A DNA stretch of 64,000 nt. Source: Mariniflexile litorale. GTDB taxonomy: Bacteria > Bacteroidota > Bacteroidia > Flavobacteriales > Flavobacteriaceae. Made by a program: the position numbers and the translations under genes. The stretch lies in contig NZ_CP155618.1 in NCBI RefSeq assembly GCF_031128465.2, forward strand, positions 3,958,501 to 4,022,500, given 5' to 3'. Below the pieces are notes generated by a model. That model did no database searches. It was not told where the DNA came from and saw only the letters and a list, made by a program, of their open reading frames with translations. The stretch's first letter is position 1; each line of letters starts with the position of its first letter. Positions 4,721-50,030 of this stretch are shown here, in pieces.

Positions 4721-6661
4721 TTATATGTTGCCGTATGTTTTGTCCGTTTTATCATGCAAAATGTTTTTCACTTTTTTATAGATTTGAACTTTTTTATCAA
4801 AGCGTTCGTAATCAGAATTATTAGATTTATATTCAGGTATCAATCGTTTCATTTTCAAAACGATATTATTGTTTTGGAAACGGTTGGTGATACATAATTC
4901 TTCTATCTCCGATTTTACAGAAGCATAGTCCAGTTCTCTTGTTTTACTTATCATTATTTTTTTATGGTAAGTAGACAAGGTATTCTCTCCATTTGCTAAT
5001 AGTTCTTCATAAAGTTTTTCACCAGGGCGTAAACCTGTTATTTTAATATCAATATCTTCCGGAAAGTTAAGTCCAGAAAGTTTGATCATGTTTTTAGCTA
5101 AATCGTAAATTTTAACCGACTCGCCCATGTCAAAAATAAATATTTCACCACCTTTCCCCATAGTTCCCGCCTCTAAAACCAGTTGTGCAGCTTCTGGAAT
5201 GGTCATAAAGTACCTCGTAATATCTTGATGTGTTAAGGTTAATGGCCCTCCATTTTCAATTTGTTTCTTAAACAAAGGGATAACAGAACCGTTTGAACCC
5301 AATACATTACCAAAACGCGTGGTAATAAACTTGGTTTTACTTTCTTTTTGTAAACAGCTAATATACATTTCGGCCATACGTTTGGTGGCCCCCATTACAC
5401 TCGTTGGGTTTACTGCTTTATCAGTAGAAATAAAAACAAATTTCTTAACGTTATAACGGGATGATGTATCCGCTAAAAGCTTTGTACCATTCACATTAAT
5501 TTTAATAGCTTCATAAGGTGATTTTTCCATTAAAGGCACATGCTTATAGGCTGCTGCATGAAACACCATGGTAGGTTTGTATTCTTGAAAAATACTATCC
5601 ATTCTTAAACCATCTCTAATATCGGCCACAATAGCCGTAAAATGGCGCTTCCCATCACGTATTAAATCTTGTTGTACATCATATAATCCAGACTCCGCTT
5701 GATCAACTAATATTAATTCTTTAACATCAAAATTAGCCAATTGTTTAACTAACTCACTACCTATAGAACCTGCAGCACCAGTAATTAACACCGTTTCTCC
5801 TTTAAATTCATTTAAAAGGTTTGGGTTATCTATTTGAATGGGTGCGCGACCTAAAAGATCCTCAATTTGTACTTGCTTGATTTGGCGAACATTTAACTCC
5901 CCATTAATCCAACTTTCAATAGGTGGCACTTTAGTAATCTTAACCGTTAAACTTACTAAACTAAGTAAACTGTCTTTAGTAATGTTTTCAGATGTTATTA
6001 TTATCTCATCTATATTATTAGAATCTATATAAGCTTGATCAATTTTATTTTTGTTAAGAATGGAAATACCATTAATAGATTTCCCGTTTTTTCTAGAATT
6101 ATCATCAATAAACCCAACAACATGAAACTTTTCTTTAACGTTGCTAATTAAAGCATTATAAGTAACAATCCCAGAATCTCCAGCGCCATAAATAAGCACT
6201 TTTTTGGATGCGATGTATCTGCATTTCAAATGATTATAACCCATTTTAAAAACCAGTCTGCTAGAAATCAATAACACAAAACTTAACAAAGCATGCATGG
6301 TTAATATGGATAATGGTATGGTAAACCCTTCCATAAAGTCTAACTCTTTATTTACGAGTACAAATAATACCGTTAAAATAGACATTAAAGCAACCGCTTT
6401 AAATAAATTAACCACGTCGGTAAACCCAGTATGTCTTATAACACTTTTAAAAGATCCAAAAACGAAAAAGCTAATAGAAGCAACAATCAGGATAAAAGGT
6501 ATTTGAAATAAGAACTGGTTAAAATCAAAATTTAAAGTAAAATTAAACCTTATAAAGTAAGAAGCACAAAAGGTTATCAGTACGATTGCTAAATCAATTG
6601 CAAAAACCAACCATTTTGAGGCGTATTTTTGTGAGAGATAGATGAAGTAATTGTTTATCAT
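4721..6661 (-). CDS. membrane UDP-GlcNAc 4,6-dehydratase (PglF/WbpM/FlaA1-like)
   Basis: Extended SDR enzyme predicted to convert UDP-GlcNAc to the UDP-4-keto-6-deoxy sugar, precursor of Qui2NAc4N-type residues. The 646-aa protein has four predicted TM helices in the first 140 residues, a CoA-binding-like Rossmann segment (YGAGDSGIVTYNAL, about 157) and a catalytic SDR domain starting at VLITGAAGSIGSEL (about 290). The active site reads STDKAVNPTSVMGATKRMAE: a Met replaces the usual Tyr of SxYxxxK, typical of large WbpM-like dehydratases. It overlaps the aminotransferase gene by 4 bp, so the two should act in sequence. An exact epimer product cannot be read from sequence. Confidence 0.9.
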   Translation of the reverse strand: MINNYFIYLSQKYASKWLVFAIDLAIVLITFCASYFIRFNFTLNFDFNQFLFQIPFILIVASISFFVFGSFKSVIRHTGFTDVVNLFKAVALMSILTVLFVLVNKELDFMEGFTIPLSILTMHALLSFVLLISSRLVFKMGYNHLKCRYIASKKVLIYGAGDSGIVTYNALISNVKEKFHVVGFIDDNSRKNGKSINGISILNKNKIDQAYIDSNNIDEIIITSENITKDSLLSLVSLTVKITKVPPIESWINGELNVRQIKQVQIEDLLGRAPIQIDNPNLLNEFKGETVLITGAAGSIGSELVKQLANFDVKELILVDQAESGLYDVQQDLIRDGKRHFTAIVADIRDGLRMDSIFQEYKPTMVFHAAAYKHVPLMEKSPYEAIKINVNGTKLLADTSSRYNVKKFVFISTDKAVNPTSVMGATKRMAEMYISCLQKESKTKFITTRFGNVLGSNGSVIPLFKKQIENGGPLTLTHQDITRYFMTIPEAAQLVLEAGTMGKGGEIFIFDMGESVKIYDLAKNMIKLSGLNFPEDIDIKITGLRPGEKLYEELLANGENTLSTYHKKIMISKTRELDYASVKSEIEELCITNRFQNNNIVLKMKRLIPEYKSNNSDYERFDKKVQIYKKVKNILHDKTDKTYGNI

Positions 6662-7788
6662 AGGTTTGGGGTTTTTAATATAATGTCTAGTATTCTATTC
6701 AAATCGTCTTGACTTAAATTAGATCCGCTTGGTAAACACAGTCCTTTGTTAAAAAGTGTTTCCGAGGTTCCATCTGTAAAGTGCAAACAGTCTTTAAAAA
6801 CAGGTTGCATATGCATAGGTTTCCATAAAGGTCTTGACTCAATATCTTCTTTTAAAAGATTCAGTCTTATTGCTTCTCGTAATTCAAATGAATTGGTTGT
6901 AATACAAGTAAGCCATCTATTAGAATAAAAACCTTCTGGTTCTTCTAAAAATGAAATAGAAGAATGGTTCGATAAATGCGTTTTGTAAAAATTATAATTA
7001 GCTCTTCTAGCATCTACGTGCTTATCCAACACTTCCATTTGCCCACGACCTATCCCAGCCAACACATTGCTCATTCTATAATTAAATCCAACAGATGAAT
7101 GTTCGTAATGAGGAGCGTTGTCTCTGGCTTGCGTCGCTAAAAAAACAGCTTGGTTCTTTAACTCTAAATGGTGAGTTACAAGAGCACCACCACCCGATGT
7201 GGTAATTATTTTATTACCATTAAAAGACAATATACCAATATCCGAAAGTGTTCCACAAGCGGTATTGTAATAGCTACTTCCTAAAGCTTCAGCACTATCT
7301 TCTACTACTGGAATATCGTATTTTTTTGCAATAGCATTAATCTGCTTTGCTTTATAGGGCATACCGTATAAATGAACCGCTATAATAGCTTTTGGTTTTT
7401 TATTCTTTTCAATACGATCTATAATAGCAATTTCAAGTAATTCAGGAGACATGTTCCATGTGTCCGACTCACTATCAATAAAAACAGGTGTGGCGCCTTG
7501 GTAAATAATAGGATTTGCAGAGGCTGAAAAAGTAAAACTTTGGCATAATACTTCATCCCCTTTTGAAACACCCAATAATTGAAGTGCTAAATGTATTGCT
7601 GCCGTTCCCGAACTTAATACAGCTACATGAGAATCATTTCCTAAATAATTTTGGATATCCGCTTCAAAACCATCTACATTGGGGCCTAATGGAGCTATCC
7701 AATTGGTATCGAAGGCTTCATTCACAAATTTTTGTTCAGAGCCACCCATATGAGGTGAGGATAAGTATATTTTGGTTTTGGTCAACAT
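6658..7788 (-). CDS. PLP-dependent sugar aminotransferase (DegT family, PglE-like)
   Basis: Predicted to aminate C4 of the UDP-4-keto-6-deoxy-GlcNAc made by the overlapping dehydratase, giving UDP-Qui2NAc4N or an epimer. The 376-aa protein opens with the PglE/PseC-like IYLSSPHMGGSEQKFV. It then has the cofactor-binding SSGTAAIHLAL, the EDSAEALGS motif and the PLP lysine in SFNGNKIITTSGGGA. It is the first gene of the minus-strand export operon, with a 4-bp overlap into the dehydratase. The upstream region carries a near-consensus AATTTTTG at about 7831-7838 (minus). A C3 aminotransferase role is less likely because the partner is a UDP-GlcNAc dehydratase. Confidence 0.88.
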   Translation of the reverse strand: MLTKTKIYLSSPHMGGSEQKFVNEAFDTNWIAPLGPNVDGFEADIQNYLGNDSHVAVLSSGTAAIHLALQLLGVSKGDEVLCQSFTFSASANPIIYQGATPVFIDSESDTWNMSPELLEIAIIDRIEKNKKPKAIIAVHLYGMPYKAKQINAIAKKYDIPVVEDSAEALGSSYYNTACGTLSDIGILSFNGNKIITTSGGGALVTHHLELKNQAVFLATQARDNAPHYEHSSVGFNYRMSNVLAGIGRGQMEVLDKHVDARRANYNFYKTHLSNHSSISFLEEPEGFYSNRWLTCITTNSFELREAIRLNLLKEDIESRPLWKPMHMQPVFKDCLHFTDGTSETLFNKGLCLPSGSNLSQDDLNRILDIILKTPNL

Positions 7789-19467: not shown

Positions 19468-19478
19468 ATAGAGGCATG

Positions 19479-28518: not shown

Positions 28519-28520
28519 GT

Positions 28521-37547: not shown

Positions 37548-38297
37548 ATGGCAAAATTAAAAAGCCTTATTAAAATTGAAGGCACATTAGATGGTATGAC
37601 CTTTTATAAAGGTAAAGAAGGGTATTTAGTACGCACCAAAGGAGGCGTATCAAAAAACAGAATTGAAACCGATCCGGCTTTTATTCGGACACGTGAAAAT
37701 GGACAAGAATTTTCACAAATTTCTAAAAGTGGTAAATTACTACGCTTGGTACTTACCCCTTTAATTTCAGACGTTAAAGACGATACGCTCATAGCCCGAT
37801 TGGTTAAGGTGATGGGGCAAGTTAAAAATGCCGACAGTACATCCACGAGAGGCAATCGGCAAGTAGGTATTGGCTTAGAAACGCTGGAAGGAAAAAACAT
37901 GCTGAAAGGTTTTGATTTCAACGCCAATGCTGGTTTAAATGAGATCCTATTAACAGATTATCTGTTAAATACTGCCACAGGGGAAATCAACATACCCAAC
38001 TTTATACCCTTACAGCAGCTCAACACGCCCAGTGGCGCCACACATGTAAGCATCTTATCAGCCGTTATTAATATCAATTTTATAACGAATGAAAAGACAC
38101 TACAAGCAAGCGCTGAAATAAATGTCCCCATTAATAATACTTCGGTAGCTATAAATGCGACGCCTCCAAGTATGCCTAATGGCACAGGACAAACGGTGTT
38201 CCTGTTTAAAATAAGTTTTTATCAGGAAATTAATGGACTCCAATACGCATTAAACAATGGATCCTTCAACGTTTTACAAATTATAGAAATAATTTAA
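37548..38297 (+). CDS. uncharacterised 249-aa flavobacterial protein
   Basis: I do not know its function. It begins KLKSLIKIEGTLDGMTFYKG and has GYLVRTKGGVSKNRIETDPA, FIRTRENGQEFSQISKSGKL and a C-terminal half rich in beta-type segments. From memory, proteins starting MAKxKGxIKLxGTxxxxTFYK..GGV are frequent in Bacteroidota, often several per genome, without a described role. It has no signal peptide, TM helix or cysteine. A perfect TACCTTTG at 37421-37428 could be its promoter, with a leader of about 110 nt holding a small hairpin. It lies alone between two long gaps inside the polysaccharide locus. Confidence 0.8.
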   Translation: MAKLKSLIKIEGTLDGMTFYKGKEGYLVRTKGGVSKNRIETDPAFIRTRENGQEFSQISKSGKLLRLVLTPLISDVKDDTLIARLVKVMGQVKNADSTSTRGNRQVGIGLETLEGKNMLKGFDFNANAGLNEILLTDYLLNTATGEINIPNFIPLQQLNTPSGATHVSILSAVININFITNEKTLQASAEINVPINNTSVAINATPPSMPNGTGQTVFLFKISFYQEINGLQYALNNGSFNVLQIIEII

Positions 38298-38537: not shown

Positions 38538-39692
38538 ATGAAAAAAAAACTAATTCGTGTAGTCACTGCAGACGTGTCATTTGGTTTAACTCAAGGCCAA
38601 TTAAAATTTCTTTCTGAAACCTTTGAAGTTATAGCAGTGTCTTCCGCAGGAGAGCGACTGGATCTTGTTTTTAAAACGGAAGGCGTTAGAACCCAAGCCA
38701 TTGAAATTAGTAGACCTATTTCTATACTAAACGATGTAAAGTCTTTGTATTCATTATATAAATTCTTTAAAAAAGAATCTCCCGATATTGTACATTCCAT
38801 GACACCCAAAGCGGGTCTTTTAAGTATGGTAGCTGCTTATTTTGCTAAAGTACCTGTACGTATACACACTTTTACAGGGTTGATATTCCCTAGTAAAAAT
38901 GGTTTTTTAAAAAAGTTATTAATAGCAATGGATAAAACCTTATGCCTATGCGCCACTAAAATAATACCAGAGGGTAATGGGGTAAAAAATGATTTAATAA
39001 GCCATAATATAACTTCAAAACCGCTTCACGTTATTGCGAATGGAAATATAAATGGTGTAGACCTCGCATATTACAATTCTAATATTTTTAATGAAAGCTT
39101 TAAGTTAAAACTAAGAGAAGACTTAAAAATACATAAAGACGACTATGTTTTTACATTTGCAGGAAGATTAGTTGGAGATAAAGGAATGAATGAACTAGTA
39201 GCTGCTTTTAATCTAATTAACAGTAACTTAAAAAAAACAAAGTTATTACTAATAGGTAGTTTTGAAGAAGCCTTAGACCCCTTAGAACCAGAAACCAAAA
39301 AACAGATTAAGCTTAATGAAAATATAATAACCACAGGATGGGTGAGCGATGTAAGACCCTATTTTGCTATAGCAAATTGCCTCACCTTCCCCAGTTACCG
39401 CGAAGGATTCCCAAACGTGGTATTACAAGCTTGTGCACTTAAACTCCCTTGTATAGTAACCAACATTAATGGGTCTAACGAAATCATTTCCGAACCCGAA
39501 AACGGCTTAATCATACCTGTTAAAAATACAGAGGCGCTCTATAAAGCTATGGAAAAAATGTATCATTTAAGTACTGAAGCTCATGCTAAAATGGGAGAAA
39601 CATCACAAAACATTATCATCTCAAAATTTGAGCAGCAATTTGTTTGGAACGCGCTGTTGGAAGAATATAAAAACCTCTTAAACCTCCATTAG
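38538..39692 (+). CDS. family 4 glycosyltransferase (PglA/CapM-like)
   Basis: 384-aa GT4. It begins KKLIRVVTADVSFGLTQGQL with the family-typical ISPPRxxx-like SRPISILNDVKSLYSLYKFF and PDIVHSMTPKAGLLSMVAAY, plus HTFTGLIFPSKNG. The donor domain has FTFAGRLVGDKGMNELVAAF and the signature SYREGFPNVVLQACAL (E-G-F-P-N). The PDIVHxHTPKAGLLG-like segment is typical of PglA-type enzymes that add the second sugar on a Pgl-type lipid carrier. That fits the PglC-like initiator at 45606 and the PglE/F-like genes at 4721-7788. Confidence 0.88.
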   Translation: MKKKLIRVVTADVSFGLTQGQLKFLSETFEVIAVSSAGERLDLVFKTEGVRTQAIEISRPISILNDVKSLYSLYKFFKKESPDIVHSMTPKAGLLSMVAAYFAKVPVRIHTFTGLIFPSKNGFLKKLLIAMDKTLCLCATKIIPEGNGVKNDLISHNITSKPLHVIANGNINGVDLAYYNSNIFNESFKLKLREDLKIHKDDYVFTFAGRLVGDKGMNELVAAFNLINSNLKKTKLLLIGSFEEALDPLEPETKKQIKLNENIITTGWVSDVRPYFAIANCLTFPSYREGFPNVVLQACALKLPCIVTNINGSNEIISEPENGLIIPVKNTEALYKAMEKMYHLSTEAHAKMGETSQNIIISKFEQQFVWNALLEEYKNLLNLH

Positions 39693-39881: not shown

Positions 39882-40976
39882 ATGAATCCGAATTTAAAAG
39901 TAGTAGCACTATCAAAAACTGATTTGGTAGAGGCGATTCACAACAATACCTATTGGCAAGATGAAAGAATACTAATGCCAAAAAGTAAAGCCTTATGGTT
40001 AATAAAAAACAATACAATTGAGGATGATGCATATGTTGCTATTATTTGCCTAGAAAACAATGTTATTATTTCCTACCTACTTACCATACCTGATACTATA
40101 CACGTAGTAAATGCTGGTTTAAAAAAAATGTATTGGATGCATGAGTGGTGGGTAGATCATAAATTCCAAGGCAGTATTGTGCCCTCCTACCTCTTTAATC
40201 AAGCTGCTAAAAAATTAAGTAAAAACATTTTAATAGAATCCAATGCAGAAAATTCAGATTCTTTTTTTAACAGTCAGTTTAATACCATACATACCAAAAC
40301 AAGGCATACCATATTCTTTTTATTAGAAAGTACCGTATTAATAAATAGATTTCCTTTTTTAAAATATTTTAAATTTTTGATAACTATTGCAAATAGCACT
40401 TTTGTAAGAGTGTTGAATAGTAGAAACTATAAAAAAACACAAAAATCCTTAGTAGCTGTTCAGTATGAATATTTAAATGAATTGGATCCGGAGGCTTGGA
40501 ATTTTATAGAACCTAGGTGTAAAAATGATTTTACATATAAGACTCAAGAAAACATAAATTGGTATATTGATAATTCCCAATACACACAAACGCCCATTAA
40601 CAAACGATTTAAGTCTGTATTCTCTACTACAGGGTTTAGTAATAATATTCACAACCATTCATTTAAGATAATTAAAAATGGAGAAATTATAGGATTCATA
40701 TCTTATTTATTTAATATGATTGAATTTAATGTAAAATATTTTTTACCAAAAGACGATGCGCATTATGAAATATGCATGGATGCCCTCATGGAGCATTGCT
40801 TAAAAGCGAAAGCAACCTATATCATAACTGATGACACCAAGTTAAGCAACGAAATAAATAAAAAATACACAGCATTATTTACTTATAAAAAAGAGAAAAA
40901 GTCCAGAGTCCATAAAGGAGCGGATGTCGCTTTTAATGAGATTATTTTAACGGACAGAGACGGTAGGTTTCATTAA
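39882..40976 (+). CDS. double-GNAT-like acyltransferase, module A
   Basis: 364 aa, no signal peptide or TM helix. The N-terminal half has a GNAT-like pattern (VAIICLENNVIISYLLTIPD, then KKMYWMHEWWVDHKFQGSIV) and the C-terminal half a second one (IKNGEIIGFISYLF, then YEICMDALMEHCLKAKATYI). This gives a FemX-like two-lobed layout. It is a paralogue of the 364-aa protein at 42717, and both end LTDRDGxF(H/Y). It is followed by an adenylation enzyme and a carrier protein, so it is the best candidate to move the carrier-bound aminoacyl group to a sugar amine or hydroxyl. No close characterised relative is recognised, and GNAT assignment is by pattern only. Confidence 0.65.
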   Translation: MNPNLKVVALSKTDLVEAIHNNTYWQDERILMPKSKALWLIKNNTIEDDAYVAIICLENNVIISYLLTIPDTIHVVNAGLKKMYWMHEWWVDHKFQGSIVPSYLFNQAAKKLSKNILIESNAENSDSFFNSQFNTIHTKTRHTIFFLLESTVLINRFPFLKYFKFLITIANSTFVRVLNSRNYKKTQKSLVAVQYEYLNELDPEAWNFIEPRCKNDFTYKTQENINWYIDNSQYTQTPINKRFKSVFSTTGFSNNIHNHSFKIIKNGEIIGFISYLFNMIEFNVKYFLPKDDAHYEICMDALMEHCLKAKATYIITDDTKLSNEINKKYTALFTYKKEKKSRVHKGADVAFNEIILTDRDGRFH

Positions 40977-40988
40977 TTTTAATTAGGG

Positions 40989-42479
40989 ATGAATATAATA
41001 CAAAACATTTTAAACACTCTCCAAACACACCATACAAAGAATGCTTTTTGTATTAATGATGAATACTTTACATACGAAACGTTTTCAAATAGTATTTCTA
41101 AAATACAAAGTGCTTTACAAAAAAACACAGCTTCAAATAACAAACATATTGGCTTAATTACAAACAACGATTTAGAAACATATGCGGCCATTATAGCCAT
41201 TTGGTTAGAAGGCAAAGCCTATATTCCTTTAAACCCTGATACTCCAAAAAGTAGAAATCTAGAAGTCATTAAGCAAGCTCATGTTCAAACCATAATCGAT
41301 TCTTCAACGTCTTCACAATATATTGAATATGACATTATAAATCCGAATAAGATTGTAGATACAACAGCAAAACCTATTTTAAATAATTATAATGAAGCAA
41401 ATTTAGCCTATATATTTTTTACATCAGGTACTACAGGCACCCCTAAAGGCGTGCAAATAACTCAAAACAATCTCAATTATTTTATTGATGCCTTTCAAGA
41501 TTTAAAGTACCCCATCACGCATACTGACAAATGCCTGCAAATGTTTGATCTCACTTTCGATCTTTCGGTAGTGTCGTTTATGGCGCCGCTAATAAGTGGT
41601 GCTTGCATCTATACAACATCCAACTCGAATATAAAATACCTAGAAGTTTTAAGACTCATTTCAAATTATGATTTGACCTTCACCTTAATGGTACCTTCCA
41701 TACTCCATTCTTTACGCCCTTTTTTCAAAAAAATAAATAACACCAGCATCAGGATAAGCATGTTTTGCGGTGAAGCCTTACACGAGGATATTACTAAAGC
41801 TTGGAGCAGCTGCGTTCCAAATGCTCTAATTGCTAACGTTTACGGCCCTACTGAATGCACCATCTATTGTACAAATTATGTATACCATACAAATAGTAAA
41901 TCTCATAATGGCATCTTATCGGTAGGCAAAGAAATGCTTCATACCAAGACTATAATAGTCGACGAAAATAACATCCCCATACATACCAATGAACCTGGTG
42001 AACTATGCCTTAGTGGTCCACAATTAACCATCGGGTATTTAAACAACGAAGCCATAAATAATAAAGCCTTTTTTTATTTAAAAGAAAATAATAAACAAAC
42101 ACGCTTTTATAAAACCGGCGATCTATGTAAAAAAGATGCAGAAGGCGATATTTTATACTTAGGAAGAATCGATTTTCAAGCTAAAATACAAGGATTTAGA
42201 GTTGAACTCTCTGAAATTGAGTATCATATAAAAAAAACAATCGTTGATGTTAATCTAGTGGCCGTTGTTTTTAAAAACAAGATTAATAATTCGGAAATAG
42301 CATTAGCAATAGAAAGTTCTGAATTTGATACAAAACAGGATATAGAATCCTTAAAAACCAAGTTACCGAGTTACATGATTCCTACAAAAACAATGTTTTT
42401 TAAAACATGGCCTCTAAATGCAAACGGAAAAACGAATAGAAAGGAAATTATAAAATTAGTCGAAGAAAAATATGGATAG
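40989..42479 (+). CDS. amino-acid adenylation enzyme (DltA/NRPS A-domain-like), module A
   Basis: 496-aa stand-alone AMP-forming ligase. Motifs in order: A3 YIFFTSGTTGTPKGV (about 141-155), A4 LTFDLSVVS (Asp191), A5 ANVYGPTECTIYC, GELCLSGPQLTIGYL, A7 RFYKTGDLCKKDAEGD, A8 GRIDFQAKIQGFRVELSEIE, A10 LNANGKTNRKE (catalytic Lys481). The FDxSV aspartate is the residue that pairs with the substrate alpha-amino group in DltA and PheA, so an amino acid substrate is likely. The 3' end overlaps the carrier-protein gene by 8 bp, implying co-translation. The exact amino acid is not predicted. Confidence 0.88.
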   Translation: MNIIQNILNTLQTHHTKNAFCINDEYFTYETFSNSISKIQSALQKNTASNNKHIGLITNNDLETYAAIIAIWLEGKAYIPLNPDTPKSRNLEVIKQAHVQTIIDSSTSSQYIEYDIINPNKIVDTTAKPILNNYNEANLAYIFFTSGTTGTPKGVQITQNNLNYFIDAFQDLKYPITHTDKCLQMFDLTFDLSVVSFMAPLISGACIYTTSNSNIKYLEVLRLISNYDLTFTLMVPSILHSLRPFFKKINNTSIRISMFCGEALHEDITKAWSSCVPNALIANVYGPTECTIYCTNYVYHTNSKSHNGILSVGKEMLHTKTIIVDENNIPIHTNEPGELCLSGPQLTIGYLNNEAINNKAFFYLKENNKQTRFYKTGDLCKKDAEGDILYLGRIDFQAKIQGFRVELSEIEYHIKKTIVDVNLVAVVFKNKINNSEIALAIESSEFDTKQDIESLKTKLPSYMIPTKTMFFKTWPLNANGKTNRKEIIKLVEEKYG

Positions 42480-42711
42480 TACTATACTAGATAAAATTAA
42501 AGTTATTTTCTCCAATGTATTGGAACATAGCGACTTTAACCTTACAGAATCTACAACTACAAAAGATGTGAATGGTTGGGAGTCATCTACACACATGATG
42601 ATTATTACCGAGGTAGAAACAGAATTTGATATAGAATTCGAATTGGATGAGTTATGGAGCATGAAAAATGTTGGTGATTTAGTACGAATTATAGCCTTAA
42701 AAACACAGTAG
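42472..42711 (+). CDS. acyl/peptidyl carrier protein, module A
   Basis: 79-aa acidic four-helix carrier protein. The phosphopantetheine site is in DVNGWESSTHMMII (Ser38), followed by ETEFDIEFELDELWSMKNVGDL, typical helix II-III of ACPs. It would take the aminoacyl group from the adenylation enzyme whose gene it overlaps by 8 bp. No phosphopantetheinyl transferase is in the window, so an enzyme encoded elsewhere must load it. Confidence 0.88.
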   Translation: MDSTILDKIKVIFSNVLEHSDFNLTESTTTKDVNGWESSTHMMIITEVETEFDIEFELDELWSMKNVGDLVRIIALKTQ

Positions 42712-42716
42712 GCCTT

Positions 42717-43811
42717 ATGGGAGACATAAAAATAAAGCACCTTTCTAAAAAAGTTTTGCGTGATTATCTAGATAACAACCAAAATTGGAATAACAAAACG
42801 ACGGCGTTTCCCAAATGTAAAATATCATGGTTACTTAGCAATGATCGAATGAGTGAAGATGATTTTTGCGGTGTTATTGCGGAAGAAGATCAGGAAATCA
42901 TAGGCCTTATTTACATGATACCAGACTTAATTAGAACTCCAAATGATGGTGAAAAAAAACTATATTGGATGATGTATTGGTGGGTGTCTGAAAAATACAA
43001 TGGCAATGTGTTATCTACCTATATCTACAGTGAAGCTTTAAGGATTGTAAAAAATCAAGTGATTGTAAAATCGTATGCAGAAGAGGCTACCAGTTTTTAC
43101 AAAAAAATGCCTTTTAAAACCATAGGCTCTAGAGTTAGATTTACTATTTTTTTTAGTTTAGATCCTAGCATATTACTAGCTAAATTTAAATTCCTTAAAC
43201 CTTTTAAATTCGTATTAATCGGTTTTGATTATCTCATTACAAAAGCACTATACTTATACAATACTTCAAAAATAAAACAGAGCACCAAAAATGTAAAGTA
43301 TGAATATTTAAACTCATTAGACAATCAAGCTTGGGAATTTATAGAGCCATTATGCAAAAACGATTTGGTATACAAAACAAAAGAATATGTAAGTTGGCAA
43401 ATAAATAAACTGCAATACCTACAAACACCTATAAGCAATAAAAACAGCTATACATCTTTAGAAACAGGACTTTCAAGCAACATTGCCATACATAACCTAA
43501 AGGTTTTAAAAGAAAATGAAATAATTGGTTTTATATCTTTTATTGTTAACTATAATGAATTAAATGTTAAATATTTTTTAGTAAAAGAAGCGACAAACTA
43601 TAAGCTGTGTGTAGATGTTTTAATGGAGCATTTTATAACTCTCAAAAAAAAATATATTTTTACCGACGACGTTAAATTAGCCACTACAATAAAACAAAAA
43701 TTTGCTACTATTTTTACACATACAGCAAACAAAAAAGCCCTGGCTCACAAGGATGTAAATTTAAGTTTTGAAATGCAAGACCTAACAGATAGAGATGGTC
43801 ATTTTTACTAG
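42717..43811 (+). CDS. double-GNAT-like acyltransferase, module B
   Basis: 364 aa, collinear paralogue of the protein at 39882. Shared landmarks are KKLYWMMYWWVSEKYNGNVL, YEYLNSLDNQAWEFIEPLCKN, NYKLCVDVLMEHFITLKKKY and the terminal LTDRDGHFY. Each copy has two GNAT-like halves. It is 5 bp after carrier protein A and 15 bp before adenylation enzyme B. Divergence is substantial, so this is not a very recent duplication and the two may use different aminoacyl donors or acceptors. Confidence 0.65.
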   Translation: MGDIKIKHLSKKVLRDYLDNNQNWNNKTTAFPKCKISWLLSNDRMSEDDFCGVIAEEDQEIIGLIYMIPDLIRTPNDGEKKLYWMMYWWVSEKYNGNVLSTYIYSEALRIVKNQVIVKSYAEEATSFYKKMPFKTIGSRVRFTIFFSLDPSILLAKFKFLKPFKFVLIGFDYLITKALYLYNTSKIKQSTKNVKYEYLNSLDNQAWEFIEPLCKNDLVYKTKEYVSWQINKLQYLQTPISNKNSYTSLETGLSSNIAIHNLKVLKENEIIGFISFIVNYNELNVKYFLVKEATNYKLCVDVLMEHFITLKKKYIFTDDVKLATTIKQKFATIFTHTANKKALAHKDVNLSFEMQDLTDRDGHFY

Positions 43812-43826
43812 TTAATTATCTAAGAT

Positions 43827-45329
43827 ATGGAGTTTATTAAAAGCATTTCAGATGCAATTCAGCAAAATCAAGATAAAAATGCCTTCTGCATAAATAAAAC
43901 ATTTTATACTTATAAAGAATTTATTATATGCATTTCAAAAATAAGAGGGCACATAAGAAACAACGTTAAGGAAACCGAAAAACTAATAGGTTTAGTAACC
44001 CATGACGATCTAGAAACTTATGCCAGCATTATAGCGCTTTGGTTAGAAGGTAAAGCCTATGTACCTGTAAACCCCGACGTGCCTATAGATAGAAATATTC
44101 AAATATTAACCCTTACTGAAATCAATTATGTGATAGATTCTTTAGAAACTTCGGCGTTCTCAAACAATTATCACATCATAAAATCAACACCAGCAAACGG
44201 GTCTCAAGTTATAGATTTAGAGCCTGTAAAAACATCAGGAGATGGTATCGCCTACATTTTATTTACGTCTGGCTCTACGGGGCTTCCTAAAGGGGTACCT
44301 ATTACATTTGATAATGTAAATGCCTTAGTAAAAGCTGTAGATGCAGAACCTGAGTTTCAATTAACAACACAAGACCGTTGTTTACAAATGTTTGAATTAA
44401 CCTTTGATTTTTCAGTGGTAACCTACTTATTCCCTATATTAGCAGGAGCTTGCATCTTTACCATCCCAAAAGCAGCCATCAAATATTTTTATATTTTCAA
44501 ACTTATTAAAGAACAAAAGCTCACGGTATTAACAATGGTACCTTCCATAATAAACTACCTACGCCCCTATTTTAAAGAAATTAATGAGCCACATGTAAGG
44601 TATTGTAGTTTTGGTGGTGGCGCTCTCTATAGCGATATAGCAGTAGAATGGAGCAATTGCTTACCGAATTGTAAAATATTCAATTATTACGGGCCTACTG
44701 AATTTACAGTATATAGTGGGTTTTATCCTTATAATAAAGAAACCCACACAAAAGCACATAATGGTATCGTGGCCATAGGAACGCCGCAGTTAGATACTCT
44801 ATACCTGGTGGTGGATGAAAATAATAATGAAACGAAAGTAAATGAAATAGGGGAATTGTGTTTAGCAGGTCCGCAAATAACAAAGGGATACTGGAAAGAT
44901 GAAGAGCGAAATAAAGAACGCTTTTTTTTTAGAAATGAAAAGGGTACATCTATTCGATATTACAAAACGGGCGACCTGTGTTTCAAAGACGCCGTTGGAG
45001 ATTACCTATATGTAGGTAGGGCTGATTTTCAGGTTAAAATAAGAGGCTATAGAGTAGAACTATCAGAAATTGAATTTCATGCCAAAACCATATCGACTAA
45101 AAAGGTTAATATGGTGGCGATAGATCTTGAAAATAACTTAGGTAACGCTGAATTAGGCTTAGCTATAGAATCTGAACCTTTTGAAACCGATGCTATTTTT
45201 GATTACTTAAAAACGAAACTACCTAGTTATATGATTCCTATGCACCAACTATTTCTAAAAGAGTTTCCGCATAGCATAAATGGAAAAATAGATAGAAAAG
45301 AACTACGACAACAATTTAATTTTAAATAA
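43827..45329 (+). CDS. amino-acid adenylation enzyme (DltA/NRPS A-domain-like), module B
   Basis: 500-aa stand-alone adenylation enzyme, paralogue of that at 40989. Motifs: A3 YILFTSGSTGLPKGVPIT (about 143-160), A4 LTFDFSVVTY (Asp194, alpha-amino-binding position kept), A5 FNYYGPTEFTVYSG, GELCLAGPQITKGYW, A7 RYYKTGDLCFKDAVGD, A8 GRADFQVKIRGYRVELSEIE, A10 SINGKIDRKEL (Lys487). Pocket surroundings differ from copy A (for example CSFGGGALYSD versus SMFCGEALHED), which hints at different specificity. A carrier-protein gene follows 2 bp downstream. Confidence 0.88.
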   Translation: MEFIKSISDAIQQNQDKNAFCINKTFYTYKEFIICISKIRGHIRNNVKETEKLIGLVTHDDLETYASIIALWLEGKAYVPVNPDVPIDRNIQILTLTEINYVIDSLETSAFSNNYHIIKSTPANGSQVIDLEPVKTSGDGIAYILFTSGSTGLPKGVPITFDNVNALVKAVDAEPEFQLTTQDRCLQMFELTFDFSVVTYLFPILAGACIFTIPKAAIKYFYIFKLIKEQKLTVLTMVPSIINYLRPYFKEINEPHVRYCSFGGGALYSDIAVEWSNCLPNCKIFNYYGPTEFTVYSGFYPYNKETHTKAHNGIVAIGTPQLDTLYLVVDENNNETKVNEIGELCLAGPQITKGYWKDEERNKERFFFRNEKGTSIRYYKTGDLCFKDAVGDYLYVGRADFQVKIRGYRVELSEIEFHAKTISTKKVNMVAIDLENNLGNAELGLAIESEPFETDAIFDYLKTKLPSYMIPMHQLFLKEFPHSINGKIDRKELRQQFNFK

Positions 45330-45331
45330 TC

Positions 45332-45580
45332 ATGAATAAAGAAGACATTTTAATAAAAATAAGAAAAGCTTTTAGTTCTGTTTTAGAACATGAAAACTTT
45401 CAACTAACCGATCAAACAACAGCTGAGGATGTAGATGGTTGGGAATCTGTAACCCACATGATGATTATTAATGAGATTGAAACTAAATTTGAAATAAAAT
45501 TTGAACTTATGGATTTAATGAGTTTAGAAAATATAGGAGACTTAATAAAGGCAATACAATCAAAAACAGACAACAAATAG
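45332..45580 (+). CDS. acyl/peptidyl carrier protein, module B
   Basis: 82-aa carrier protein with DVDGWESVTHMMII (phosphopantetheine Ser39) and ETKFEIKFELMDLMSLENIGDL. Paralogue of carrier A. Partner of the adenylation enzyme ending 2 bp upstream. It lies 25 bp before the initiating sugar transferase, so modules A and B and the transferase probably form one transcript. Confidence 0.88.
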   Translation: MNKEDILIKIRKAFSSVLEHENFQLTDQTTAEDVDGWESVTHMMIINEIETKFEIKFELMDLMSLENIGDLIKAIQSKTDNK

Positions 45581-45605: not shown

Positions 45606-46229
45606 ATGAATTACAAAAACACATTAAAACCCGTATTAGATTTTATATTAGCATTCACCATATTAACACTGCTAGCTCCCATACTTATTGCAACCACTAT
45701 ATTACTATACTTTTTAAATGATGGTAAACCTTTTTTTTATCAAAGACGTCCTGGTAAAAATGAAAAGATTTTTAACATCATCAAGTTTAAAACCATGAAT
45801 GATAAAACGGATGCCCATGGTAAACTATTACCCGATACGGAGCGTTTAACAAAAATAGGCCAGCTAGTAAGAAAAACATCCATAGATGAAGTACCCCAAC
45901 TTCTAAATGTTTTAAAAGGAGACATGTCTATAGTAGGCCCGCGCCCCTTATTAGTGCAATATTTACCTTACTACACACCCATCGAAAAGAAAAGACATAC
46001 AATGCGACCTGGTATTACCGGATTAGCCCAAGTGAATGGTAGAAATTTTATAGATTGGGATACAAAACTTAAATACGATGTAGAATATGTTGAAAACGCT
46101 TCTTTAAAATTAGATCTAAACATCCTACTAAAAACCATCTACAAAGTAGTGGCTTCCAAAGACGTTTCTGTAGACACCACTAAAGTAGAAACCTACCTGG
46201 ATGTACTAAGGTCAAATAAAAAAAGCTAG
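45606..46229 (+). CDS. initiating phosphoglycosyltransferase (PglC-type, bacterial sugar transferase)
   Basis: 207-aa monotopic membrane enzyme that transfers a sugar-1-phosphate to undecaprenyl phosphate. It has a single re-entrant hydrophobic stretch (about 10-33), FYQRRPGKNEKIFNIIKFKT, the Asp-Glu catalytic pair in TSIDEVPQLLNVLKGDMSIVGP, then RPGITGLAQVNGRNFIDWD. The short form without the WcaJ N-terminal domain matches PglC-like enzymes that prefer UDP-diNAcBac-type sugars. This agrees with the PglE/F-like genes at 4721-7788. It is the last gene of the plus-strand locus. Confidence 0.92.
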   Translation: MNYKNTLKPVLDFILAFTILTLLAPILIATTILLYFLNDGKPFFYQRRPGKNEKIFNIIKFKTMNDKTDAHGKLLPDTERLTKIGQLVRKTSIDEVPQLLNVLKGDMSIVGPRPLLVQYLPYYTPIEKKRHTMRPGITGLAQVNGRNFIDWDTKLKYDVEYVENASLKLDLNILLKTIYKVVASKDVSVDTTKVETYLDVLRSNKKS

Positions 46230-46252: not shown

Positions 46253-47353
46253 TTATTTGTTAAACGCATATTTTCTGTAAGATGGAAAAAAACTAATTCT
46301 ACTTTCTTTCTTGGCTTCTACAGATATGCCCTCTTCCGTAACAACATTACTATTAAGCAAACCTTCTAATATCTTGTACATTTTTTTATTAATAATCTTC
46401 CTGCCCGTATAAAAAATTAAATCTTTATCATCGGGAAAGAACGATTTTTTATATTGGTAAAGACTATCCCCGTCGCTTCTACCACCTCCTAGCAAATAGT
46501 ATTCATAATGATGGGCTCTAGCCCATTTTAAAACTTCTATTTTTAAGAAATCATTAGGTCGCATGTTGAAGTATTCTGATAATGTACCACCTAGAAACGA
46601 ATAAAGCGTTTTTCCTGAAATCAATATCAACTCCGTTGAGATGGCTACACCATCTTTAAAAACAATGGCAATCATAAAATTATTACCACTTAACTTTATA
46701 ATATTTTCAAAATATGCCATAGAATAATGGTACTCTTGATCCGCACCTATACGAGACATCGTTTGGTTGTAAATATCATAAAATTGCTTAATATCAGAAC
46801 GAGATAAGTCCTGATATAGAAATTGTATCTTCAAATTTTCTTTGGCACTCTTTCGGTAATTATTTCTAACTTTTTGTTTAAAATTCTGCCACTGAATATC
46901 CGCTTCTTTAATCGCGCCATTCACGTTAGTTAACGTGGGTACTAACTTCCCAGAATAAAAATGAAAATTATGATTCAGACTAAAACGTATAAATTCAGAG
47001 ACCACATCATGCTCTTTATACCAAGCATCCACAAGTTCCCAGAATTTAATAAGATAGCCGCGAGACATGTTTTCATTAAAAAGGGGACCACTATACCCAT
47101 AGGGTGAAATCACATCATAATAGGTTTGATTATTTTTTGAGAAAGGAATTTTTCTAAAGATAATAGGCATTAATATTAAAACCTTACCAGTAGCGTCAAC
47201 TAGTGTGAAATATTTTAAGAGATCACTACTCCCCTCTGAAACATTGGAGAACCAAATTTTATAAAAAGGATTGATAACATCAAAAGACTCTACATACTTA
47301 AGATATAAATTTAAATCCTCGTCATTTACTATTCTATGTACTTTTAACTCCAT
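46253..47353 (-). CDS. FemAB/FemX-like GNAT acyltransferase
   Basis: 366-aa cytosolic protein of the FemAB-like GNAT group, whose founding members add amino acids from aminoacyl-tRNA to peptidoglycan precursors. It has the segment FKQKVRNNYRKSAKENL, RIGADQEYHYSMAYFENII and the C-terminal lobe DGVAISTELILISGKTLYSF, LGGTLSEYFNMRPNDFLKIE, YYLLGGGRSDGDSLYQYKKS. The terminal GGG..D..L..FK block is typical of this group in polysaccharide loci. It lies last in the minus-strand run ATP-grasp, HAD, FemAB, 4 bp after the HAD gene. I infer aminoacylation of a polysaccharide precursor; the donor is unknown. Confidence 0.78.
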   Translation of the reverse strand: MELKVHRIVNDEDLNLYLKYVESFDVINPFYKIWFSNVSEGSSDLLKYFTLVDATGKVLILMPIIFRKIPFSKNNQTYYDVISPYGYSGPLFNENMSRGYLIKFWELVDAWYKEHDVVSEFIRFSLNHNFHFYSGKLVPTLTNVNGAIKEADIQWQNFKQKVRNNYRKSAKENLKIQFLYQDLSRSDIKQFYDIYNQTMSRIGADQEYHYSMAYFENIIKLSGNNFMIAIVFKDGVAISTELILISGKTLYSFLGGTLSEYFNMRPNDFLKIEVLKWARAHHYEYYLLGGGRSDGDSLYQYKKSFFPDDKDLIFYTGRKIINKKMYKILEGLLNSNVVTEEGISVEAKKESRISFFPSYRKYAFNK

Positions 47354-47357
47354 GTAT

Positions 47358-48044
47358 TTAAATTAGTTGCTTAATTAATCCCTCTATTTCAACTAAATCT
47401 TTAATAATATAATGCGGTGCTTCAAAAGTGTCCTTTTTAGAAAACGATTGTTTATGGATATTTTTACCATTATCTAAAAGGCATACAGTATGCCAACCCA
47501 ACTTATTCGGAGCAATAAAATCCTTACGGGTATTATCACCCACATATATATACTGTTTAGAAGTACCGTAGGCATCTACAAAATACTTAAAATTATTAAT
47601 ATGGGGTTTTTCAGAACCAAATTCTTCAGATATAATAACGGCATCAAAATAAGAAGAAAGCCCCAATGCGCTAATCTTGTTTCGTTGCTGTATACTACGC
47701 CCGTCGGTTATTAATCCCATTTTAAATACGTCTCTTTTTAAATTTTCTAACAATTTTTGGATGCTATTCGATAATGAAATATCTGGTTTGTGCTGCCTAT
47801 AAATATTCAGCAAACCTTTAATTTCTACATCTTTAATACGATGCATTTCAAGAATCCCTTCAAAAACATTTAAACCCTTATCATACAAACAAACCATATC
47901 TGAATAAATGAGAGGATATAAGCTGTTGCATGTACTGGCTAAGTATTGCGCTATTTCTTTATAAGCCGATTTTAAAAAATCGATCTCATGATACAAAGTG
48001 TCATCTAAATCGAATACAACTACTAAATTATTCTTTATAATCAT
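47358..48044 (-). CDS. HAD-superfamily hydrolase
   Basis: 228-aa HAD phosphatase-type protein. Motif I is VVVFDLDDTLYHE (nucleophile Asp in DLDDT), motif II is GLITDGRS, the motif III lysine is in SEEFGSEKPHINNFKYF, and motif IV is YVGDNTRKDFIAPNKLG. A helical C1-type cap lies at about 20-95. It overlaps the ATP-grasp gene by 17 bp and precedes the FemAB-like gene by 4 bp, so all three should act together. The substrate is likely a phosphorylated precursor or intermediate of that pathway, by context only. Confidence 0.82.
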   Translation of the reverse strand: MIIKNNLVVVFDLDDTLYHEIDFLKSAYKEIAQYLASTCNSLYPLIYSDMVCLYDKGLNVFEGILEMHRIKDVEIKGLLNIYRQHKPDISLSNSIQKLLENLKRDVFKMGLITDGRSIQQRNKISALGLSSYFDAVIISEEFGSEKPHINNFKYFVDAYGTSKQYIYVGDNTRKDFIAPNKLGWHTVCLLDNGKNIHKQSFSKKDTFEAPHYIIKDLVEIEGLIKQLI

Positions 48045-48993
48045 GAACTAATACTTCGTTATCATACCTAAGCATTAACAAATTGTCTTCCCAAGCATCA
48101 TAGAAAGCAATGTCTTTATTAAAAAGATATTCCTCTATAATCCATTTGGGGTAATTGGCACCTGCGGCATATGCCAAAGGGAACCCGCCTCCAAATCGCG
48201 CATTAATTTCAATACCATATATTTTATCTTTACTCAAATGTTTAAAAAATTGAGCGGTAAGGCAACCTATGGCGCCGTCAATATAACTTAAATGCTCTTT
48301 GATATAATCTACCAAAACATTTCTTTTAGTAATACCTTTATTTACTTCGCCATCCCGTACCTCAATACGTTGTCTTGGCACCACCGATTTTAAATAATGA
48401 TTTTTATCATAATACAAATCACAAGTAAACTCTTCGTACTTAGAATGATCTAAATATTCTAAAAACATCAAGTTTTCATTTTTAAAATGATATTCTGTTA
48501 AATCTTCATGACTATTAATAATAAAAGTATCCACACTTCTACTCCCATTAAAAGGTTTTATAAATAAGGGTAATTTATAATCGTATTTAGAATACTCTTT
48601 GGCTACTTTAATATTATTTTCAATAAAAAAGGAACTCATTTGGCGTTTGTCTCTACAAATATTTATAAAATCATGAGACGCTACTATGGGAGTGATACCG
48701 TTTTTTATTAAAAGCTGTTTATTTTGTGCTAGCAAAAGTAATTCAGTATCAATAGTAGGAATAATGAGTTTGATGTTATTCTGAAGGCATACATTTATAA
48801 GCAAATTTAAATAATCAGAATCTGTAACCAAAGGAAGCTGAAAAGCACCATCGGACACACGGCATGCAGATGATAAACTAATATTAAAATCGGTAGTCAT
48901 AACCTTCCCCTCGGGTATGAGTGTTTTTAGTTCTTTTTGAAAAGCTTTTACTAGAGAAACACGTCTTCCTGCTGATGTAATTAATATATTCAT
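48028..48993 (-). CDS. ATP-grasp carboxylate-amine ligase (PylC/CarB-like)
   Basis: About 321 aa from ATG 48993 (MNILITSAGRRVSLVKAF), which matches the start of ATP-grasp proteins of this type. A longer in-frame start at 49023 adds ten residues without family likeness. It has a pre-ATP-grasp domain (NIKLIIPTIDTELLLLAQNK), ATP-binding lysine in KLPLFIKPFNGSRSV, and the Mg-binding YGIEINARFGGGFPLAYAAG. Such enzymes join a carboxylate to an amine through an acyl phosphate. It is the first gene of the trio with the HAD and FemAB-like proteins. I infer synthesis of an amino-acid conjugate for the polysaccharide; substrates unknown. Confidence 0.82.
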   Translation of the reverse strand: MNILITSAGRRVSLVKAFQKELKTLIPEGKVMTTDFNISLSSACRVSDGAFQLPLVTDSDYLNLLINVCLQNNIKLIIPTIDTELLLLAQNKQLLIKNGITPIVASHDFINICRDKRQMSSFFIENNIKVAKEYSKYDYKLPLFIKPFNGSRSVDTFIINSHEDLTEYHFKNENLMFLEYLDHSKYEEFTCDLYYDKNHYLKSVVPRQRIEVRDGEVNKGITKRNVLVDYIKEHLSYIDGAIGCLTAQFFKHLSKDKIYGIEINARFGGGFPLAYAAGANYPKWIIEEYLFNKDIAFYDAWEDNLLMLRYDNEVLVHDYKE

Positions 48994-49065
48994 TACTATG
49001 TTGTTTTTAGAAACCTGAGACAAACATACGCAAAGAAATTAAATGTAAAAAAATCATACGGCCAT

Positions 49066-50025
49066 TTAAAGTTGTTCATGCTTAATTATATAGTTTGAAA
49101 TTAATTTTGATATGATATTCCGGGCATTATTATTCCAGTGCTTATCATAAATTAATGTAGTAGGTGTTTTAGATTTTTTAAATGCCTCGCCAAAATCAAT
49201 AAATTTAAACTTATGGATATCTAAATAGTTTAGAAATGTCGGAGGGGTAATAGATGCGTCTAAAAGCAAAACAAATCTGTTTTTGTCATAGCCATAGTTT
49301 GTAACTAAACTTTCAAAATTTGCTATATATTCAGTTTCTAATTCATTATAGCGTTTTTTTTCTTTATCTGGGTGAATCAATGAAACACTCTGTTGTTCTT
49401 CAGAAAATAGGTTTTGGGCAAACGCTCTAGGAACATCAAAAAAACCTATATGTTGTAAATAAACTACTAATTTTATTTGTCTTAGCGCTTTATAAGCTGG
49501 AGATTCAAAAATCATCCGGTCTTGCACTACGTGATATTCTCCACGAGTTAAATCATTTTCAAATTTAATACCTAAAAAAACATAATCAATGAAATCAAAC
49601 TGCGCTTTGTATTGCTTTATTAAATGCAGCTGATCAGCCAAATCATAGCCAGCATAGCCATACTCATACACTTCGATGCCTTTTAATTGGTTTTCAATTT
49701 TAGCACCTATAGAATTATAATAATTTTGATGAAAACCTTCTATAAACGAATCCCCCACCAAAGCGAGTTCAACCTTATCTTGGGTAGGATTAAATTCACG
49801 ATATGAATTATAGCCCGAGGTATTAATGTGATACTCCGAAAAATTTTGACGCCTGTTACCTGTTACTGAGAAACCGCTTTGGTTGGGCATCCACTTTTCT
49901 ACACCGTAAGTATCTACATAACGAACCGGGTAATCTTTAGTAAGGTGAAAAACACGCACTAAAACCTCCAAACTTATTACAAGAAGTACGCTATATAGTA
50001 AGATCTTTAAAACTAATTTCTTCAT
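49066..50025 (-). CDS. SGNH-like membrane-anchored partner of MBOAT 3
   Basis: 319 aa with one N-terminal TM helix (LVLKILLYSVLLVISLEVLV), a nucleophile block VELALVGDSFIEGFHQNY (GDS) and an Asp-x-His pair in LIYDKHWNNNARNIIS near the C-terminus, so an extracytoplasmic SGNH-hydrolase fold. It is translated 5 bp after MBOAT 3 on the minus strand. It is not similar in detail to the SGNH proteins at 19479 and 28521. It probably completes O-acylation of the polymer outside the inner membrane. Confidence 0.78.
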   Translation of the reverse strand: MKKLVLKILLYSVLLVISLEVLVRVFHLTKDYPVRYVDTYGVEKWMPNQSGFSVTGNRRQNFSEYHINTSGYNSYREFNPTQDKVELALVGDSFIEGFHQNYYNSIGAKIENQLKGIEVYEYGYAGYDLADQLHLIKQYKAQFDFIDYVFLGIKFENDLTRGEYHVVQDRMIFESPAYKALRQIKLVVYLQHIGFFDVPRAFAQNLFSEEQQSVSLIHPDKEKKRYNELETEYIANFESLVTNYGYDKNRFVLLLDASITPPTFLNYLDIHKFKFIDFGEAFKKSKTPTTLIYDKHWNNNARNIISKLISNYIIKHEQL

Positions 50026-50030
50026 CTGCT

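What the first reader, a model, noticed from the sequence alone, without database searches (positions are those of the whole stretch)
39882..45580. Duplicated adenylation / carrier protein / double-GNAT modules in a polysaccharide locus
Two collinear three-gene sets (39882-42711 and 42717-45580) have the same order: 364-aa two-lobed GNAT-like protein, stand-alone DltA-like adenylation enzyme, carrier protein. Both adenylation enzymes keep the A4 aspartate (Asp191, Asp194) that binds an alpha-amino group in DltA/PheA, and both carriers keep the phosphopantetheine serine (Ser38, Ser39). This predicts ACP-dependent transfer of two amino acids (or one dipeptide in two steps) onto sugars, unlike Dlt, where an MBOAT does the transfer. 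I know of no described system with this exact architecture.
Basis: partly seen in the sequence, partly recalled or inferred. Interest (0 to 1): 0.85.

Follow-up and report, generated by a model that had tools for sequence, protein, structure and literature searches.

The report
Amino-acid capping cassette for surface sugar
A marine bacterium carries two side-by-side three-gene cassettes that appear to activate an amino acid, hold it on a small carrier protein and attach it to an amino sugar of its surface polysaccharide; this would be a new way to vary a sugar decoration already known from related bacteria.

Summary
In detail: 39882-45580 has two contiguous acyltransferase / adenylation enzyme / carrier sets, 41, 47 and 59% identical. 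The triad is not unique: of 38 loci compared, all from the window's family or order, 33 carry one copy. The window and one other genome carry doubles, and both doubles pair two adenylation pocket classes. One relative has FkbH instead of the adenylation enzyme; another keeps acyltransferase plus carrier and has a Dlt-like run a few kb away. So the acyltransferase probably takes its acyl group from the carrier. The missing context is bacillosamine: the window also encodes PglF-, PglE- and PglC-like enzymes, the last directly after the second triad, and the genome's only PglD_N domain is inside the PglF gene. I read the triads as R-group cassettes that put amino acids on the 4-amine of UDP-Qui2NAc4NH2, a variant of the carrier/PglD-type route predicted for Flavobacterium psychrophilum. 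The first adenylation enzyme has a DltA-like pocket with the D-Ala-selecting cysteine.

The parts
39882..40976 (+). GN1: GNAT-type acyltransferase, copy 1 (364 aa)
   Evidence: 41% to GN2; groups with L106 at 100/99; C-terminus DGRFH-end as in the family
40989..42479 (+). AD1: stand-alone adenylation enzyme, DltA-like pocket DLVSMCVIYK
   Evidence: PF00501 193 bits; pocket read from an alignment with a DltA
42472..42711 (+). CP1: carrier protein, phosphopantetheine Ser38
   Evidence: PF00550 20.1 bits, cut-off 20.8; Ser kept in 39 of 39
42717..43811 (+). GN2: GNAT-type acyltransferase, copy 2 (364 aa)
   Evidence: PF00583 E 1e-5; 70% to L019
43827..45329 (+). AD2: stand-alone adenylation enzyme, pocket DFVSSGYVYK (the family's commonest class)
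   Evidence: PF00501 191 bits; pocket class
45332..45580 (+). CP2: carrier protein, phosphopantetheine Ser39
   Evidence: PF00550 27.8 bits
45606..46229 (+). PglC-like phosphoglycosyl transferase, starting 26 bases after CP2
   Evidence: best solved match 8e37, diacetylbacillosaminyl-1-phosphate transferase, E 5e-67
6658..7788 (-). PglE-like aminotransferase (UDP-Qui2NAc4NH2 formation, predicted)
   Evidence: best solved matches 1o61 and 4ztc, E 2e-99 and 1e-98
4721..6661 (-). PglF-like UDP-GlcNAc 4,6-dehydratase; holds the genome's only PglD_N match
   Evidence: best solved match WlaL 5bju, E 4e-97
38538..39692 (+). GT4 glycosyltransferase just upstream
   Evidence: Glycos_transf_1; a gene of this GT4 group found in 30 of 38 loci
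46253..47353 (-). FemX/FemAB-like protein, conserved neighbour
   Evidence: PF13480 and PF02388; found in 35 of 38 loci

Best explanation
Each triad is an R-group cassette for a bacillosamine-type sugar. The adenylation enzyme activates one amino acid with ATP and loads it onto its carrier. The GNAT-type protein moves the aminoacyl group from the carrier to an amino group of a nucleotide sugar in the cytoplasm, most likely the 4-amine of UDP-Qui2NAc4NH2 made by the PglF and PglE homologues at the left of the same locus. The adjacent PglC-like enzyme would then pass the decorated phosphosugar to the lipid carrier to start the repeat unit. AD1 most likely uses D-alanine; AD2 uses a different amino acid that I cannot name. 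With two triads and no PglD_N protein other than PglF, the strain probably makes a two-layer group (aminoacyl on aminoacyl) or two alternative groups. Shown: gene content, homology, synteny, pocket classes, exchanged partners. Inferred: the chemistry, the acceptor, the amino acids, the order of action.
For: Contiguous GN-AD-CP in 33 of 38 loci, double in 2. GN with FkbH and a carrier in place of the adenylation enzyme (L114), and GN directly beside a carrier with no adenylation enzyme next to it (L109): the constant partner of GN is the carrier. A sugar transferase of the same group as the window's PglC-like one in 34 of 38 loci, within 0.65 kb in 29; only the window's was checked against solved PglC. 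PglF, PglE and PglC homologues in the window. The only PglD_N match of this genome lies inside the PglF ORF. A DegT aminotransferase match of 288-321 bits (the window's PglE: 294) lies within 45 kb on the same contig in 17 of 22 GN-positive genomes. AD1 keeps the Leu and the Cys of the D-Ala pocket of DltA (passages of PMC8972799 and PMC4176424); in the tree its next relative after L106 is the adenylation enzyme of a Dlt-like run. O-polysaccharides of Flavobacterium psychrophilum and Flexibacter maritimus carry Qui2NAc4N with unusual 4-N-acyl groups (PMC3210612 passages).
Against: No structure, no biochemistry. The PglE/PglF pair is 32 kb from the triads, on the other strand; I ran no control on GN-negative genomes, and the DegT genes of the other genomes were not checked to be PglE. 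Two hexapeptide proteins of the window (16356-16910, 53 bits, and 20461-21183, 21 bits, against my PglD profile) could do PglD's work. The window also holds an Fdt-type 3-amino sugar pathway that could supply the acceptor, although FdtA matches occur in only 8 of 22 GN-positive genomes and share a contig with GN only in the window's genome, G771 and G121, where they are about 0.8 Mb apart. In the same genus, L050 has the triad among housekeeping-type genes. MBOAT genes are seen near 29 of 38 triads and lie 67 and 26 bases upstream of GN in L111 and L113. Cys at the pocket position occurs in 8 of 43 enzymes read, among them Segatella, L066 and L067 enzymes of unknown substrate.
Confidence: 0.57

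Rival explanations
1. The aminoacyl group goes onto a different amine, such as the 3-amine of a dTDP-Qui3N or Fuc3N sugar made by the Fdt genes at 14683-18006, with the two triads serving two different sugars.
For: RmlA-type, two FdtA, a hexapeptide transferase and a DegT aminotransferase are in the window. N-acetyl-D-alanyl groups on Qui3N and Qui4N are known in marine polysaccharides (PMC3210612 passages).
Against: FdtA is found in only 8 of 22 GN-positive genomes and is rarely near GN. The Fdt genes have a hexapeptide transferase of their own. The usual neighbour is the PglC-like group.
Confidence: 0.2
2. The system works like Dlt: the carriers feed one of the MBOAT proteins, which transfer D-alanine or another amino acid as an ester, and the GNAT protein does something else.
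For: Three MBOAT genes are in the window; partners at 19386 and 49066 have GDSL matches (the first under its cut-off), the one at 28437 has none. Two of the three MBOATs were scored against DltB: 145 and 149 bits. L109 has an A-CP-MBOAT run. In L111 and L113 an MBOAT lies 67 and 26 bases upstream of GN.
Against: GN is the gene that accompanies the carrier in every locus of the set. In 26 of the 29 loci with an MBOAT it is 1 kb or more from the triad. The window MBOATs score far under the DltB cut-off of 375. The MBOAT of L111 and L113 sits beside the same 159-aa regulator and 381/385-aa genes as in other loci, so it looks like the fixed flank of the region.
Confidence: 0.15
3. The adenylation enzymes load hydroxy or other non-amino acids, so the R groups are ordinary hydroxyacyl groups.
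For: Reported R groups in related bacteria are hydroxyacyl (dihydroxyhexanoyl, hydroxyglutaryl).
Against: The FDxS aspartate that holds the amino group is kept in every pocket read, 43 of 43 sequences.
Confidence: 0.08

Closest known systems
Flavobacterium psychrophilum O-polysaccharide R-group genes (wfpB-wfpG with pglE/pglF; PMC6519341, passages and abstract)
   Same: UDP-Qui2NAc4NH2 from PglF/PglE, a dedicated carrier protein, an N-acyltransferase acting before a PglC homologue, variable R group between strains
   Different: There the acyl group is predicted to be built by ketoacyl synthases and a reductase and moved by a PglD homologue; here an adenylation enzyme loads the carrier and a GNAT-type enzyme is the predicted transferase
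Dlt system (DltA, DltC, DltB, DltD)
   Same: Stand-alone adenylation enzyme plus carrier; AD1 pocket resembles DltA including the D-Ala-selecting Cys
   Different: No MBOAT/DltD in the window's unit; predicted amide to a cytoplasmic sugar instead of an ester outside the membrane; DltA equivalog cut-off not met
Segatella copri DSM 18205 plasmid capsule locus (L054)
   Same: Adenylation enzyme (39% to AD1) and carrier in a polysaccharide locus
   Different: The next gene is an AAC(3)-type protein and an alanine racemase follows; the record gives no function for the set
Lincosamide synthetase type assembly (LmbC, LmbN carrier, LmbD; recalled, no call)
   Same: Adenylation enzyme, carrier and separate enzyme join an amino acid to an amino sugar
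   Different: Antibiotic pathway with an unrelated condensing enzyme

Membership tests
Qui2NAc4NR R-group cassette (F. psychrophilum type) | PglF and PglE homologues making UDP-Qui2NAc4NH2 | tested here: met
   Solved-structure matches, E 4e-97 and 2e-99; activity inferred
Qui2NAc4NR R-group cassette (F. psychrophilum type) | PglC-type phosphoglycosyl transferase in the unit | tested here: met
   45606-46229, best match 8e37
Qui2NAc4NR R-group cassette (F. psychrophilum type) | Dedicated carrier protein | tested here: met
   Two carriers with conserved Ser
Qui2NAc4NR R-group cassette (F. psychrophilum type) | PglD-type acyltransferase moving the R group | tested here: not met
   Only PglD_N match of the genome is inside the PglF ORF; GNAT-type protein instead. 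Hexapeptide proteins without PglD_N exist in the window
Qui2NAc4NR R-group cassette (F. psychrophilum type) | Qui2NAc4NR in the polymer | not testable with these tools
   Needs polysaccharide chemistry
Dlt | DltA equivalog score | tested here: not met
   TIGR01734 264 and 249 bits, cut-off 559.85
Dlt | DltB-type MBOAT directly following A and carrier | tested here: not met
   None in the window unit; of the 38 loci seen only at L109, with an MBOAT just upstream of GN in L111 and L113
Amino-acid adenylation enzymes | AMP-binding fold with core motifs and FDxS Asp | tested here: met
   PF00501 193 and 191 bits; alignment. TIGR01733 subfamily cut-off missed (308 and 288 against 317.4)
GNAT | GNAT domain match over the curated cut-off | tested here: met
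   GN2 PF00583 26.3 bits, cut-off 20.7; GN1 none on its own
Two-lobed GNAT (NMT-like) | Second GNAT lobe | tested here: inconclusive
   hhalign of halves 3%; weak NMT matches in 3 of 29 and 1 of 15
FemX/FemAB | Profile similarity to FemX | tested here: not met
   hhalign 0.2% against the neighbouring FemX family; fold not compared

The most novel reading that the evidence does not exclude
The two triads act in sequence to build a dipeptide on the 4-amine of a nucleotide-linked bacillosamine, without ribosome, tRNA or condensation domain: the first GNAT adds D-alanine and the second adds another amino acid to its free amine. The GNAT enzymes use carrier thioesters instead of CoA and their own C-terminal carboxylate as the base, as N-myristoyltransferase does.
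Probability: 0.22. Interest if true: 0.8.

Novelty: new variant of a known kind. Interest (0 to 1): 0.62.

Why it matters
Aminoacylated amino sugars such as N-acetyl-D-alanyl Qui3N and Qui4N are reported in marine bacterial polysaccharides (PMC3210612 passages). In nine paper searches that bear on it, of which I saw listings and, for two papers, passages, I met no described enzyme set for adding the amino acid; that library lacks most subscription papers. This cassette gives a concrete, testable three-protein answer. It also suggests a modular logic: loading enzyme (adenylation or FkbH), carrier and transferase appear to be exchanged between loci, which would let bacteria diversify surface antigens one cassette at a time.

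Tried and rejected
Recent tandem duplication was rejected: each copy has a closer relative in another genome (GN1/AD1 with L106, GN2 with L019). Loss of the CoA loop of GNAT motif A as proof of carrier use was downgraded: its central position is Val or Ile in 39 of 39 carrier-clade rows, but only 1 of 4 carrier-less distant relatives has the canonical Gly (L114 left out as misaligned; the 39 include L049, whose cut contig shows no carrier). FemX relationship of GN was not supported by profile comparison. The Fdt sugar as the general acceptor was rejected as a family-wide rule. Naming the amino acids of pocket classes DFVSSGYVYK and DATSIGHVCK was not attempted, as I know no matching code. GN has no solved relative by sequence. 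No relatives in viral contigs. One Pfam search was wasted repeating known proteins. In counts I dropped adenylation hits under 400 bits and, PglD hits under 150 bits and GT4 and MBOAT hits under 300.

Full report
What is there. The window is part of a 4.5 Mb genome held as one contig. The sets are 41, 47 and 59% identical. They are the only two GN matches in the genome at E 0.001.

How widespread. A scan of genome contigs with the GN alignment gave 25 relatives from 77 pattern matches, all titled as Flavobacteriaceae genera or as an unnamed member of that family or order. In sampled genomes of the family, 11 of 199 (GN2 query) and 24 of 397 (GN1 query) had a match; a few are weak. Across the phylum, 5 of 395 matched, two of them strongly. 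So the cassette is sporadic, as expected for a variable surface-polysaccharide gene. Of 38 loci compared, 33 have one contiguous GN-AD-CP triad, two have a double, one (L109) has GN-CP with the adenylation enzyme 5.6 kb away, one (L114) has GN, FkbH and a carrier, and one contig is cut (FkbH by Pfam).

The double is not a recent duplication. GN1 and AD1 group with L106 (100/99 and 100/100), while GN2 groups with L019 (100/100) and AD2 sits in the large class. The second double, L107, has two GN-AD pairs and one carrier. In both doubles the two adenylation enzymes belong to different pocket classes: DLVSMCVIYK with DFVSSGYVYK in the window, DATSIGHVCK with DFVSSGYVYK in L107.

Pockets. I read ten pocket positions from an alignment that includes an annotated DltA (L057); the position list follows the PheA scheme, which I recalled. 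AD1 and L106 read DLVSMCVIYK, the DltA DLMSVCTVAK, L109 and one L066 enzyme DLMSLCVIFK. The main class reads DFVSSGYVYK (23 of 43) and another DATSIGHVCK (5 of 43). In DltA the D-Ala methyl group sits in a cavity of Leu, Met and Cys, and the Cys selects the D form (PMC8972799 and PMC4176424, passages read). AD1 keeps Leu and Cys and has Val for Met. The L109 enzyme lies in a run A-CP-MBOAT, and its MBOAT scores 185 bits against DltB, under the cut-off of 375. A Segatella capsule locus with a related enzyme carries an alanine racemase. D-alanine for AD1 is thus a reasonable but unproven guess. The same GN lineage (GN2 and L019) sits beside different pockets (DFVSSGYVYK and DMVSSAYIYK), and L108 has a GN of another clade with the main pocket class; this suggests that GN recognises the sugar while AD sets the amino acid.

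The acyltransferase. The N-terminal part is GNAT-like: PF00583 in 22 of 29 and 6 of 15 members at E 0.1 (the 15 include four carrier-less relatives). The C-terminal part could not be tied to GNAT. A striking feature is the C-terminus: DGx[FY]x and then the stop, in 39 of 40 carrier-clade rows (L114 differs), with a related [DE]GD-type ending in the four distant carrier-less relatives. Weak matches to the N-myristoyltransferase family suggest the same trick as that enzyme, a catalytic C-terminal carboxylate; that mechanism is recalled and its transfer to GN is inference.

The acceptor. The window's 4721-6661, 6658-7788 and 45606-46229 products have their best solved matches in WlaL, the aminotransferases 1o61 and 4ztc, and the diacetylbacillosaminyl-1-phosphate transferase; that WlaL is PglF and that 1o61 and 4ztc are C. 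jejuni PglE-type enzymes is recalled. Sugar transferases of the window PglC-like group lie within 0.65 kb of the triad in 29 of 38 loci and within the fetched stretch in 34. Of 38 loci, 25 have a PglD-like gene and 7 more a formyltransferase-like gene, four of these by weak matches. Six have neither: the window, L034, L049 (cut), L050, L112 and L114. The window's genome has no PglD_N match outside the PglF ORF, though two hexapeptide proteins in the window resemble my PglD profile weakly. In F. psychrophilum the same sugar, Qui2NAc4NR, is predicted to get its R group from a dedicated carrier by a PglD homologue before a PglC homologue acts (PMC6519341, passages and abstract). Flexibacter maritimus has hydroxyglutaryl at this position (PMC3210612, passages). 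The simplest reading is that the triads fill the PglD role with amino acids.

One or two layers. Two-layer N-acyl groups on amino sugars are known, such as N-acetyl-D-alanyl and N-(hydroxybutyryl)-alanyl (PMC3210612, passages). Relatives with one triad usually carry an acetyl- or formyltransferase-like gene near it, which could cap the amino acid; the window carries a second triad instead. L107, however, has both a double and a PglD, and L034 and L112 have one triad and neither. A dipeptide is therefore possible but not favoured strongly over two alternative groups or two acceptors.

Against the reading. No structure or assay. PglE/PglF are 32 kb away. G583 has the triad among housekeeping-type genes (L050). 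The Fdt pathway and the MBOAT genes in the same window are alternative partners, and in L111 and L113 an MBOAT lies directly upstream of GN. The count of nearby DegT aminotransferases (17 of 22 within 45 kb) has no GN-negative control, and only the window's one was checked against solved structures.

Verdict. A real, conserved and, as far as my searches reach, undescribed variant of carrier-fed N-acylation of bacillosamine-type sugars, in which an adenylation enzyme and a GNAT-type transferase replace the fatty-acid-type enzymes and PglD.

Noticed in passing
46253-49023 (-): FemX-like, HAD phosphatase and PylC-like ATP-grasp genes next to the module; by profile and start sequence the same block appears in L065, L106 and L112, and L019 has the FemX and ATP-grasp genes. 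It may add a further amino acid or peptide.
   Followed up: partly
18019-20456, 27088-29444, 49066-51482: Three MBOAT genes, each with a neighbour of SGNH-partner size; two of the neighbours have GDSL matches (one under its cut-off), the third none.
   Followed up: partly
15546-16359: Two adjacent FdtA-type ketoisomerase genes; also paired in G583 and G771. Could give both Qui3N and Fuc3N.
   Followed up: partly
L109 13575-17714 (-): Dlt-like run (adenylation, carrier, MBOAT, 322-aa protein without family match) in a polysaccharide locus of a genome of the window's family.
   Followed up: partly
L114 8001-11037 (-): GN homologue beside FkbH and a carrier: predicted glyceryl-type group instead of an amino acid (FkbH chemistry recalled).
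   Followed up: partly
L066 4676-9360 and L067 3517-9847 (-): Adenylation enzymes beside single-domain GNATs and a carrier (with FkbH in L067) in another family of the phylum; surroundings not clearly polysaccharide.
   Followed up: partly
L054 1-13836: Segatella capsule locus with phosphonate genes (aepX, aepY), adenylation enzyme, carrier, AAC(3)-type protein and alanine racemase.
   Followed up: no
L050 9992-12854: Triad in a named Mariniflexile genome stranded among housekeeping-type genes, with no sugar transferase, GT4, FemX or MBOAT in the 21 kb held.
   Followed up: no
L107 4868-6130 (-): Ornithine/DAP-type PLP decarboxylase near the second double module.
   Followed up: no
L106 11224-12285, L112 6840-7916, L065 10822-11871, L019 13001-14062: A shared roughly 350-aa protein near the triad; no Pfam match in L106 and L065, and no NCBIfam or solved-structure match in L106.
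   Followed up: partly
37548-38297 (+): 249-aa ORF with no Pfam or NCBIfam match.
   Followed up: no
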